DNA from: Ardenticatenales bacterium
GTDB taxonomy: Bacteria > Chloroflexota > Anaerolineae > Promineifilales > UBA4811
Assembly (NCBI GenBank): GCA_030593075.1
Contig: JAUVHW010000005.1
Location: forward strand, 1 to 39,834
Length of the DNA: 39,834 nt
Direction of reading: 5' to 3'
Part shown: in pieces, positions 37,169 to 39,834 of the stretch
How the letters are laid out: every line of letters begins with the position of its first letter
Numbering within the stretch: the first letter of the stretch is position 1
The notes under the pieces: model-generated
The model's database searches: none
The model's input: the letters and a program-made list of their open reading frames with translations, nothing else
What the model was told of the DNA's origin: nothing
Translations under genes and position numbers: made by a program

Positions 37169-38746
37169 TTAGCCGCGTTGTAGTAAGCGCCGCACCAGCC
37201 TCAGTTCGTCCATCTGGAGCAGGGCGGTGATAGCCAGGTAGATGGCCGCGCCCAGCGCGATTCCGCCCCCGCCGGTCAACAGCGCCGGGCTGTCCTGCCA
37301 GAGGGCCAGCCAGAGCCACAGCGCCGCTCCCATGCCGGCTGTCGCCAGGGCGGACTGGCCCAGCCCCGTCAGCAGCCAGCGCCCTTCAATTCCCCCCAGC
37401 CGGCCGCGCAGCAACCAGAGAAGCCAGAGCGCCTCGAGGATGGTCGCCAGCGAGTTAGCCAGCGCCAGCCCGCCGTGGGGCATCCAGCCGGCATCCTCAT
37501 AAAGCCGGCTCAGCCCGATGGCCAGGGCGACGTTGAGCGCCATTGCTGCGCTCCCCACCACCACCGGCGTCCTGGTGTCGTGGAGCGCGTAGAAGGCGCG
37601 CACTACGATCTCCAGGCCGGCGTGGCCTGCCAGACCCAGTGCGAAGAACCCCAGCGCCCAGGCGACGCTGGCTGTGGAGTAGGCGGTGAATTCGCCTCGC
37701 TGAAACAGCAACCCAACAATGGGGACCCGCAGAAGCAGCAGTCCGGCAGTGGCAGGGAGTGCCAGGTAGAGGACGCCGCGCAGGGTGGAAGCCAGCGTGC
37801 GGCGCACGGCTGGCAGGTCTCCCTGAGCCACCAGAGTGGAAAAGGTGGGAAAAGCCGCGATTCCCACTGCCTGCGCCACCACACCGAGCGGAAGGAGCAT
37901 GACGCGCATGGCATAGTCGAGAGCGCTGACCGCGCCCTCGCCAAAGGCGGAGGCCAGGTTGGTGTTGACCCAAAAGTTGACCCGCGTCACCGCTAGCCCC
38001 AACACCCGAGGCCCCATCAGCCGGGCGACCTGGCGCACCGCGGGATTCTCCAGCCCCAGTCCCAGGGTGTAGGTCGCTCCCCGGCCGCGTAGGCCCGGCA
38101 ACTGCACCAGCAGGTGCAGCGCCGCTCCGGCTACCACCCCCACTGCCACGCCGTGGACGCCCATGGAGGAAGACAGCAGAATCGCGCCGCCGATGATGCC
38201 CAGGTTGTACAGGATCGGCGCGACGGCCGGCAGTAGAAAGTGCTGCTGGGCGTTCAGAATCCCCATCAGCAGCCCGCTGGCGCTGAAGACTACGGTGCCG
38301 ATGAGCATGATTCGCAGCAGCTCGGCCGTCAGCTGTTGGCCGGCCGCCGGCATGTTGGGGACCAGCCACCGAGAGACAATCGGGCCTGCCAGAACGGCCG
38401 TCAGGATGGAGAGGAGGGCGACGATCACGAAGATCAGGTTGGCCGCCTGGCTCGCCAGCCGCCAGGCGCTGCGCCGGTCGCCCTTGGTGAGCAGCCCGGT
38501 GAAGACGGGAATGAAAGCGGAGGCCAGCGCGCCACCCGCCACCACCAGATAGAGCGTCTCTGGGACCACGTTGGCGGCCGCGAAGGCGTCCATCGCGATG
38601 CTGGTGCCGTAGAGGTGGCCCACGATCATCTGCCTACCCAGACCCAGCAGCCGGGCGGCCGCCGTGGCAATCATCACTGTGCCGGCCGCCCGGGCGATCT
38701 GGGTCTCCGAACGCAGAGCCGTCGGAGTGCTGACCTTGGGGAGCAT
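37169..38746 (-). CDS. murJ: Lipid II flippase MurJ
   Basis: 525 residues of the MurJ/MviN family with about 14 hydrophobic segments. The N-terminal GLGRQMIVGHLYGTSIAMDAFAAA (about 35-58), PETLYLVVAGGALASAFIPVF and the STLVAQGD helix are conserved in MurJ. It moves lipid II across the membrane for peptidoglycan synthesis. The ATG at 38746 lies only 10 nt after the predicted -10 TACAAT (38756-38761), so the message is probably leaderless or nearly so. Its promoter and first codons are the template of the repeats at 38785-39380. Confidence 0.95.
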   Translation of the reverse strand: MLPKVSTPTALRSETQIARAAGTVMIATAAARLLGLGRQMIVGHLYGTSIAMDAFAAANVVPETLYLVVAGGALASAFIPVFTGLLTKGDRRSAWRLASQAANLIFVIVALLSILTAVLAGPIVSRWLVPNMPAAGQQLTAELLRIMLIGTVVFSASGLLMGILNAQQHFLLPAVAPILYNLGIIGGAILLSSSMGVHGVAVGVVAGAALHLLVQLPGLRGRGATYTLGLGLENPAVRQVARLMGPRVLGLAVTRVNFWVNTNLASAFGEGAVSALDYAMRVMLLPLGVVAQAVGIAAFPTFSTLVAQGDLPAVRRTLASTLRGVLYLALPATAGLLLLRVPIVGLLFQRGEFTAYSTASVAWALGFFALGLAGHAGLEIVVRAFYALHDTRTPVVVGSAAMALNVALAIGLSRLYEDAGWMPHGGLALANSLATILEALWLLWLLRGRLGGIEGRWLLTGLGQSALATAGMGAALWLWLALWQDSPALLTGGGGIALGAAIYLAITALLQMDELRLVRRLLQRG

Positions 38747-38755
38747 TGTGAGCTT

Positions 38756-38783
38756 ATTGTAGCTGCAACTAGTGTGGGGACAA
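38756..38783 (-). promoter_or_regulatory. murJ promoter
   Basis: TTGTCC (38778-38783), 16-nt spacer, TACAAT (38756-38761) on the minus strand. The repeats upstream keep the TTGTCC part but change the -10 to TGCAAC. Confidence 0.6.
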
Positions 38784-38784
38784 G

Positions 38785-38866
38785 GCCTCAGCGCGCTGAG
38801 AGCTGGGTACGCCGCCCTTGGCGAGCATTATGGGCTTGTTGCAGCTGCAACTGGTGTGGGGACAAG
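38785..38866 (-). repeat. Repeat copy 1 of the murJ 5' region
   Basis: 82 nt. It contains the perfect palindrome CTCAGCGCGCTGAG (38787-38800), an ATG and about 19 codons in the murJ direction (MLAKGGVPSSQRAE...), then TTGCAGCTGCAAC and TGTGGGGACAAG. It is a diverged copy of the murJ start and promoter. Confidence 0.75.
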
Positions 38867-38945
38867 TCCTCAGCGCGCTGAGAGCTGGGTGCGCTGCCCT
38901 TGGCGAGCATTATGGGCCTGTTGCAGCAACTGGTGTGGGGACAAG
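38867..38945 (-). repeat. Repeat copy 2 of the murJ 5' region
   Basis: 79 nt, nearly identical to copy 1 except for a 3-nt deletion inside TTGCAGCTGCAAC and a few substitutions. The palindrome is at 38869-38882. Confidence 0.75.
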
Positions 38946-39048
38946 CGCACCGAAGCCTGGCCGGGAAGCCTCATTGCACCAATGCTGCTCGGCGCGTCAC
39001 CCACAAGCGGGGGAGCCACCGAATAGACCGGGCGTCTGATATGGGGGA

Positions 39049-39064
39049 GCCAACCGAGGTTGGC
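39049..39064. repeat. Inverted repeat
   Basis: GCCAACC (39049-39055) and GGTTGGC (39058-39064) separated by GA, in the 38946-39265 segment between the repeat copies, which otherwise shows no gene. Confidence 0.5.
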
Positions 39065-39161
39065 CGACTGTGCTACACCGGCCCGCCGAACCCCTCGCGC
39101 TCCCGACAGCAGCAGGCGCCCTTGCCGTGCCTACTCACCACCACCACAATGTGGCCCTGGA

Positions 39162-39211
39162 ACATGTTTCAACATGTTTCCTGATATCAGCCGCTGAATT
39201 CATTCAGCGGC
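39162..39211. repeat. Tandem 10-mer and near-perfect palindromes
   Basis: AACATGTTTC occurs twice in tandem (about 39162-39181). Next come CTGATATCAG (39181-39190) and an inverted repeat GCCGCTGAAT (39190-39199) / ATTCAGCGGC (39202-39211) with two central bases. These could be protein-binding sites or a mobile-element end. Confidence 0.5.
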
Positions 39212-39265
39212 GGTGCTGGGACTGGGAGGTGGGACGCGGCCGGGCTGGTTTCCTGCCAGCCCCCC

Positions 39266-39340
39266 AAGCGCGCTGAGAGCGGGGTACGCTGCACTCGGCG
39301 AGCATTATGGGTCTACTGTAGGTAGGACTGGGGTGGGGAT
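39266..39340 (-). repeat. Repeat copy 3 of the murJ 5' region
   Basis: A more diverged copy: AAGCGCGCTGAGAGC, GGGTACGC, CGGCGAGCATTATGGG, then TGGGGTGGGGAT in place of GTGTGGGGACAAG. The ATG and its codons (MLAECSVPRSQRA...) are still present on the minus strand. Confidence 0.65.
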
Positions 39341-39347
39341 AATGCCC

Positions 39348-39380
39348 AAGCGCGCTGAGAGCCGGGTACGCCGCCCCCGG
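39348..39380 (-). repeat. Repeat copy 4, partial
   Basis: AAGCGCGCTGAGAGCCGGGTACGCCGCCCCCGG; similarity fades after this point, but an ATG still opens a frame with VPGSQRA on the minus strand. Confidence 0.5.
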
Positions 39381-39407
39381 CTCTCATCAAAAGGAGGAGA
39401 AGAAGAG

Positions 39408-39437
39408 ATGTCACCCTTCAAGCATAATTCTACATAA
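39408..39437 (+). other. Very short ORF behind a strong ribosome binding site
   Basis: ATG at 39408 opens nine codons (MSPFKHNST) ending in TAA. AAGGAGGAG (39391-39399) is an almost perfect Shine-Dalgarno 8 nt upstream. It may be a leader peptide or chance; no downstream gene on this strand in the window. Local sequence is more AT-rich than its surroundings. Confidence 0.3.
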
Positions 39438-39502
39438 CATAAGGTTCAGATGCTGGACGGTAGCCACACGCCTCCCCTACGCGAAACCTACGCTTGTGCG
39501 AC

Positions 39503-39594
39503 GGTTCACAAACCAGAGGGACTGTGACGGCTGACGCCGGCCGAAGGGCATGCGGCTGGGTGGTAGCCAAGCGGTGCAGGGGCAGCGGGCCCCC
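39503..39594. other. Run of short hairpins, possible structured RNA
   Basis: Four consecutive small stems: GGTT/AACC (39503-39514), CGGC/GCCG (39528-39539), GGCT/AGCC (39554-39568) and GGGG/CCCC (39579-39593). No coding frame with recognisable similarity. The strand is unknown. Confidence 0.25.
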
Positions 39595-39612
39595 GGTCGG
39601 CCGCCGCTAGGC

Positions 39613-39834
39613 TCACGGCTGACTGATGATCATGGGCTGCAGCGGCAATGCATCCCCGGCCGGCTGCCCTTGGACAGAAACCGGCAGCCGTGCGGCCGGA
39701 TCCCCCAGCGGATATAGTCCGACGACCAACTGGTACTCGCCGGCCGGCGTCCCGGCCGGGATGAGCACCCCGTGGTTGTCCACCTGAGTCTGTCCTGGCT
39801 GCCAGCTGCTGGTGTGCGTCAGCCCACCACCGGG
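39613..39834 (-). CDS. C-terminal end of a probable membrane glycosyltransferase-like protein (partial)
   Basis: The frame is open at the window edge; 73 residues are visible before TGA (39613-39615). The sequence DNHGVLIPAGTPAGEYQLVVGLYPLG with a following GDPAARLPV resembles the beta-sandwich tail that ends many large Chloroflexota membrane proteins of the glycosyltransferase-39/DUF2723 kind. The catalytic and membrane parts lie outside the window, so the family is inferred from the tail only. Confidence 0.55.
   Translation of the reverse strand, partial: PGGGLTHTSSWQPGQTQVDNHGVLIPAGTPAGEYQLVVGLYPLGDPAARLPVSVQGQPAGDALPLQPMIISQP

What the first reader, a model, noticed from the sequence alone, without database searches (positions are those of the whole stretch)
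38707..39380. Tandem diverged copies of the murJ start region upstream of murJ
Starting inside murJ, the sequence of the promoter, start codon and about first 15 codons (MLPKVSTPTALRSET) is repeated upstream at 38785-38866, 38867-38945, 39266-39340 and 39348-39380. Each copy still has an ATG and a similar peptide (MLAKGGVPSSQRAE), plus a 14-nt palindrome in copies 1 and 2 where the coding part was. This could be a stack of leader ORFs and operators controlling a flippase gene, or remains of repeated slippage. The copies keep the -35 (TTGTCC) but have lost TACAAT.
Basis: partly seen in the sequence, partly recalled or inferred. Interest (0 to 1): 0.68.

Follow-up and report, generated by a model that had tools for sequence, protein, structure and literature searches.

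The report
Duplicated murJ start beside new sRNA
The repeats before murJ are a local tandem duplication seen only in this lineage, but they start inside the gene of a previously undescribed small RNA that is conserved across a whole class of Chloroflexota bacteria and looks built to block ribosome-binding sites.

Summary
The tandem copies are real: an 82-bp unit (TRF score 333), two adjacent copies plus about one and a half more beyond an inserted interspersed repeat. The three nearest relatives lack them. The unit runs from the 3' arm of a hairpin, through the murJ promoter, to the ATG and about 5 codons. Upstream ATGs have no Shine-Dalgarno sequence, lie in changing frames and stop soon, so a stack of leader ORFs is not supported; decayed tandem duplication is.

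The hairpin arm belongs to an unannotated small-RNA gene at 39351-39419 (minus strand). A covariance model finds this RNA in 49 of 56 genomes of the order and 202 of 396 of the class, and in only one genome outside the class (weak) in a 400-genome phylum sample. Its main hairpin is 100% paired across families, with compensatory changes in 10 of 10 pairs. It carries a conserved anti-Shine-Dalgarno stretch, UCUUCUCCUCCUUUU. GCGTAGGnnnn repeats at 11-bp period lie upstream in 21 of 22 loci from other families, although the model did not contain them. No Rfam match and no publication was found. It resembles streptococcal csRNAs and cyanobacterial Yfr1 in plan but is a separate family. Transcription, targets and regulator are inferred, not shown.

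The parts
37169..38746 (-). murJ (525 aa)
38756..38783 (-). murJ promoter: TTGTCC (38783-38778), 16-nt spacer, TACAAT (38761-38756); -10 box ends 9 nt before the ATG, so a nearly leaderless mRNA is predicted
   Evidence: only promoter-like site found in 38690-39530
38736..38817 (-). repeat unit D: hairpin-3'-arm remnant, linker, murJ promoter, murJ ATG and first codons
38821..38899 (-). repeat unit C (3-nt deletion; -10 box lost)
39255..39305 (-). repeat unit B, truncated next to the interspersed repeat region
39294..39375 (-). repeat unit A; begins with the intact 3' arm of the small-RNA hairpin
39033..39211 (.). interspersed repeat of about 180 bp inside the array
   Evidence: copies on C227 (two), C399, C321 and C314
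39351..39419 (-). conserved small-RNA gene (modelled part): 5' hairpin 39419-39402, anti-Shine-Dalgarno TTCTCCTCCTTTT 39401-39389, main hairpin 39386-39356
   Evidence: no Rfam match
39427..39432 (-). -10 box TAGAAT of the small RNA, 7 nt before the predicted start at 39419
   Evidence: same position in the order's loci; TAGAAT or variants
39450..39493 (-). operator: GCGTAGGTTTC GCGTAGGGGAG GCGTGTGGCTA CCGTCCAGCAT, 11-bp direct repeats
39494..39511 (-). imperfect dyad TTGTGAACCGTCGCACAA, CRP/FNR-like spacing
   Evidence: conserved only within the order

Best explanation
Two things lie on top of each other. (1) At 39351-39419 (minus strand) is the gene of a small RNA of roughly 70-120 nt, conserved through the class. 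Its promoter carries an array of 11-bp direct repeats, most likely bound side by side by an OmpR/PhoB-type response regulator. The RNA presents an unpaired UCUUCUCCUCCUUUU next to a stable, covarying hairpin. It most likely pairs in trans with Shine-Dalgarno sequences of target mRNAs and blocks ribosome binding. (2) In this lineage only, a segment from the 3' arm of that hairpin through the murJ promoter to about codon 5 of murJ was tandemly duplicated several times; an interspersed repeat landed inside the array; the upstream copies decayed and lost their -10 box. Only the copy next to murJ keeps a promoter, which is predicted to give an almost leaderless murJ mRNA. Shown: the repeats, their absence in relatives, and the RNA's conservation, covariation and operator. 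Inferred: transcription, regulator, mode of action, and that the array has no function.
For: Array; single copy in G001 and no array in G002/G003; contig C227 looks like an allele with fewer units. RNA: 49/56 genomes of the order, 202/396 of the class, 45 of 46 matching genomes of the phylum sample lie in the class. Main hairpin: 7/10 then 10/10 pairs with compensatory change, 99.4% and 100% paired. Operator absent from the model but present in 21/22 loci from other families. Third hairpin, often with a U-run, in most order members; varied neighbours; no frame on the other strand.
Against: No transcript data. No U-run after the hairpin in the window's own family, so the RNA's 3' end there is unclear. 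Extended 18-nt target sites are not enriched in four genomes. The 5' hairpin is weak in some members. The A8 alignment was fitted to the structure, which favours it. 194 of 396 class genomes gave no match, some perhaps through strict filters.
Confidence: 0.75

Rival explanations
1. The array is a functional stack of leader ORFs or operators controlling murJ.
For: Each full copy keeps an ATG and a similar short peptide; two copies carry a perfect 14-nt palindrome.
Against: Unit length not a multiple of 3, no Shine-Dalgarno sequence, frames stop early; array absent from three relatives; upstream copies lack a -10 box; an interspersed repeat interrupts the array.
Confidence: 0.07
2. The conserved RNA is a cis-acting leader of murJ rather than a trans-acting small RNA.
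For: murJ is the downstream gene in 14 of 40 loci compared, including loci from two other families; in the window's family no terminator follows the hairpin.
Against: In most order members a third hairpin, often with a U-run, ends the RNA before murJ. Many loci have gyrA, tyrS or other genes downstream, some convergent. Several genomes have 2-3 copies at unrelated loci.
Confidence: 0.12
3. The conserved pyrimidine stretch is a binding site for an RNA-binding protein, so the RNA is a protein sponge rather than a base-pairing regulator.
For: The stretch is the most conserved part and is richer in UCU repeats than a bare anti-SD needs; extended complementary targets are not enriched.
Against: The core CUCCUCCUUUU is complementary to the canonical Shine-Dalgarno sequence (general knowledge); the second candidate in this genome (C333) shares the operator but has a different body whose common part is again anti-SD (CACCUCCUU).
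Confidence: 0.15
4. The conserved element is read on the plus strand, as a leader with a strong Shine-Dalgarno sequence (AAAAGGAGGAG) before a small ORF; in the window ATG 39408 follows it.
For: The window has AAAAGGAGGAGAAGAAGAGATG on the plus strand.
Against: Of 38 loci, 29 have no start codon in range and the rest differ in codon and position, with frames of 2-32 codons. The conserved promoter and operator lie on the far side.
Confidence: 0.02

Closest known systems
csRNAs of streptococci (CiaRH regulon; PMC3091779)
   Same: Small RNA with stem-loops flanking an unpaired anti-Shine-Dalgarno region; promoter governed by a direct repeat of a response regulator (TTTAAG-N5-TTTAAG, 11-bp period); several copies per genome.
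   Different: Different repeat sequence (GCGTAGGnnnn, 3-5 copies instead of 2); no anti-start-codon (CAU) next to the anti-SD; a long covarying hairpin with a conserved CGGCG loop; different phylum; no sequence relationship shown.
Yfr1 of cyanobacteria (PMC6778093)
   Same: Almost universal in its group; conserved single-stranded motif between two stem-loops.
   Different: No Rfam match of any kind reached the window or related loci; different motif (recalled as ACUCCUCACAC, from memory), no operator of this type known to me.
LhrC of Listeria (PMC4132741, abstract)
   Same: Multicopy small RNA under control of a two-component system (LisRK).
   Different: Not compared in sequence beyond the Rfam search; different phylum and, from memory, different motifs.
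Ordinary tandem duplication
   Same: Head-to-tail copies that decay away from the active gene, absent from relatives, probably variable in number.
   Different: Nothing important: the unit happens to join the end of an RNA gene to the start of murJ.

Membership tests
csRNA (CiaR-dependent small RNAs) | Unpaired anti-Shine-Dalgarno region beside stem-loops | tested here: met
csRNA (CiaR-dependent small RNAs) | CiaR repeat TTTAAG-N5-TTTAAG in the promoter | tested here: not met
   11-bp period is present but the repeat is GCGTAGGnnnn
csRNA (CiaR-dependent small RNAs) | Anti-start codon (CAU, or anti-GUG/UUG) in the unpaired region | tested here: not met
   not in the conserved stretch UCUUCUCCUCCUUUUAAC; the window has a CAU in the loop of the 5' hairpin only
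Yfr1 | Match to the Rfam covariance models | tested here: not met
   no Rfam family close to its gathering score in the window or seven related loci
Intrinsically terminated trans-acting small RNA | Own promoter, own terminator, position independent of neighbours | tested here: met
   promoter and operator, third hairpin often with U-run in most order members, varied neighbours; not met for the terminator in the window's own family
Intrinsically terminated trans-acting small RNA | Discrete transcript and regulated targets | not testable with these tools
   no expression data; extended target sites not enriched
OmpR/PhoB-type response-regulator operator | Direct repeats at 11-bp period | tested here: met
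   the link to this regulator family is general knowledge and the binding protein is unknown
CRP/FNR-type site | TGTGA-N6-TCACA dyad | tested here: inconclusive
   clear in most of the order, one mismatch in the window, not evident in the rest of the class
Leader-ORF (attenuation) array | Translatable leader ORFs conserved before the gene | tested here: not met

The most novel reading that the evidence does not exclude
A class-wide anti-Shine-Dalgarno small RNA, switched on by one response regulator through an 11-bp repeat array, acts as a general brake on translation in Anaerolineae; murJ, its most frequent downstream neighbour in the loci compared, would escape it in this lineage by having a nearly leaderless mRNA.
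Probability: 0.2. Interest if true: 0.8.

Novelty: new member of a known kind. Interest (0 to 1): 0.6.

Why it matters
I found no description of this conserved small RNA of the class Anaerolineae, a large group with few genetic tools. It has strong covariation, a promoter motif conserved across many families and no Rfam entry. It offers a transcript to look for, an operator with which to identify the regulator, and a clear prediction of how it acts. It also shows how a curious local repeat can arise from duplication across the border of an unannotated RNA gene.

Tried and rejected
Rfam search of the region and of seven related loci: nothing near a gathering score. The 82-bp unit as a genome-wide repeat: rejected, only C227 carries part of it. 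AGCGCGCTGAGAGC as a genome-wide motif: with up to 2 mismatches it exceeds the reversed control (115 against 32 sites), but exact matches occur only at this locus and at C227. murJ codons 5-14 as a true copy of the hairpin arm: possible but weak, so direction and number of duplication events are left open. Extended 18-nt target sites for the RNA: at control level. Operator elsewhere in six genomes: mostly at control level, except near a second candidate RNA on C333. Plus-strand reading: rejected. The match outside the class (G542): judged chance, no operator. Literature searches for this RNA: nothing. No structure prediction was needed.

Full report
WHAT WAS CLAIMED AND WHAT IS THERE. The window is contig C280 of a 422-contig genome assembly. 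Its nearest named relatives are Ardenticatenales/Anaerolineales MAGs: GLR113, CSMAG_849 and UBA2181. murJ runs from 38746 to 37169 on the minus strand. TRF finds an 82-bp period over 38734-38945 with score 333, and a further copy begins at 39267. Copies C and D are 85% identical; each is 72-76% identical to the far copy A. The palindrome, the ATGs and the loss of TACAAT are real. The TTGTCC hexamer is kept only in the two near copies.

WHAT THE UNIT IS MADE OF. In the direction of murJ each unit reads: hairpin arm (GGCGTACCC-GCTCTC), linker (AGCGCGCT), promoter region, ATG CTC GCC AAG. Relative G001 has this order once: hairpin, GGCGCGCT, GTCCC, TTACAATA, CCC, ATGCTT. Its linker and promoter stretch aligns to the murJ-side unit with a score reached by 1 of 2000 shuffles. 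G002 and G003 also carry the hairpin before murJ and have no array. So the array is best explained as tandem duplication, in this lineage, of a segment from the hairpin arm to about codon 5 of murJ. The similarity of murJ codons 5-14 to the arm is weak (14-18 of 30 bases, shuffle p 0.0002-0.02) and could be microhomology or an older fused copy. A ~180-bp interspersed repeat with copies on four other contigs lies inside the array. Contig C227 carries the last 490 bp at 95.7% identity, with the interspersed repeat following soon after the first hairpin; its continuation occurs nowhere else in the assembly. It is therefore probably an allele of the same locus with fewer units, which suggests that unit number varies.

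NO LEADER-ORF STACK. 82 is not a multiple of 3, the frames differ from copy to copy, no copy has a Shine-Dalgarno sequence, and the ORFs from the unit ATGs (19-40 aa) stop before murJ. Only the copy next to murJ has a promoter by consensus. Its -10 box ends 9 nt before the ATG, so the murJ mRNA is predicted to be almost leaderless. I take the array to be a decaying duplication without conserved function; a regulatory effect in this one lineage is not excluded.

THE HAIRPIN BELONGS TO A CONSERVED RNA. The hairpin region is far more conserved than the array: a stretch UCUUCUCCUCCUUUU before the hairpin, a -10 box, and a direct-repeat motif further up are shared with genomes of another family. 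A covariance model from six sequences, with only the hairpin paired, found matches in 49 of 56 genomes of the order, mostly full-length and usually one strong match per genome. A second model from 35 sequences found it in 202 of 396 genomes of the class and 109 of 222 genera. In the 400-genome phylum sample 46 genomes match, and all but one belong to the class; the exception lacks the promoter motif. So the RNA appears restricted to the class. The hairpin is 99.4% paired with compensatory changes in 7 of 10 pairs within the order. Across families it is 100% paired with such changes in all 10 pairs, against 86% paired in shuffles and at most 65% when slid. That alignment was fitted to the structure, which favours it, but the margin is large.

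PROMOTER. In the order the RNA is preceded by a dyad close to TTGTGAAATATTTCACAA and then 3-5 repeats of GCGTAGGTTTT. Distances between CGTA words upstream are 11 (67 times), 22 (45) and 33 (25); no other distance occurs more than once. The model contained none of this, yet in 21 of 22 loci from other families the same 11-bp repeats recur upstream (distance 11: 40 times, 22: 19) and never in the downstream control. The window has four units (39450-39493) and an imperfect dyad (39494-39511). Direct repeats at 11 bp are typical of OmpR/PhoB-type response regulators (general knowledge); the actual regulator is unknown. The dyad has the spacing of CRP/FNR sites (general knowledge) but is clear only within the order.

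AN INDEPENDENT SMALL RNA. Most order members have a third hairpin, in many followed by U-rich sequence, as in an intrinsic terminator. Of 40 loci compared, 14 (13 distinct genomes) have a murJ homologue downstream, including loci from two other families of the class; others have gyrA, tyrS or unrelated genes (these names are my reading of the sequences). Several genomes have two or three copies. The window's genome has a second candidate on C333 with a divergent body (CACCUCCUUGUCCCC) but the same kind of operator and a TATAAT box. The opposite strand shows no conserved start codon or frame. In the window's own family no U-run follows the hairpin, so read-through into murJ is possible there.

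HOW IT PROBABLY WORKS. The unpaired CUCCUCCUUUU is complementary to canonical Shine-Dalgarno sequences and resembles the 3' end of 16S rRNA (general knowledge). The simplest mechanism is blocking of ribosome binding on target mRNAs when the regulator is active. csRNAs of streptococci have the same plan: stem-loops, an unpaired anti-SD, a response-regulator direct repeat, several copies (PMC3091779). Yfr1 of cyanobacteria likewise has a single-stranded conserved motif between two stem-loops (PMC6778093). This RNA is not a csRNA: the operator sequence differs and there is no conserved anti-start codon beside the anti-SD. Sites matching the extended 18-nt stretch are not enriched in four genomes, so targets remain open, and a protein-binding role for the pyrimidine stretch is a serious rival.

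STATUS OF THE CLAIMS. Shown: the repeats, their absence in relatives, the RNA's conservation, covariation, operator and distribution, and the lack of an Rfam match. Inferred: transcription, the regulator family, base pairing with Shine-Dalgarno sequences, and neutrality of the array. No publication describing the RNA was found in the open-access library, which does not cover most subscription journals.

Noticed in passing
window 39033-39211; copies on C227 (two), C399, C321, C314: Interspersed repeat of about 180 bp in this genome, 75-91% identical between copies, tandem on C227. A 50-bp part of it also matches many genomes of the order; it ends in a palindrome CCGCTGAATGAATTCAGCGG-like sequence. 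Perhaps a miniature mobile element.
   Followed up: partly
L215 (G000:C333:1000-1400), RNA at C333:1182-1248: Second small-RNA candidate in the same genome with the same kind of 11-bp operator, a TATAAT box, a CACCUCCUU stretch and a similar hairpin.
   Followed up: partly
L144, L147, L148, L163, L151 (upstream of the RNA match): In some families a further hairpin domain (GGCATGGTTC...GAACCATGCC) lies between the promoter and the anti-SD stretch, with the 11-bp operator further upstream.
   Followed up: no
L129, L132, L219, L220, L224, L231: A related-looking but distinct RNA (GCAAGGACACACAACTTTTTCTCCTTTT, hairpin, T-run) with its own conserved promoter region and no 11-bp operator, in several genera of the order.
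   Followed up: no
L114, L131 (genus g11): Two TTCTTCTCC modules in a row under one operator, as if the RNA had duplicated its anti-SD part.
   Followed up: no
window 39344-39834 and C227:383-872: Two contigs of the same assembly overlap at 95.7% identity, pointing to strain variation within this genome bin.
   Followed up: partly
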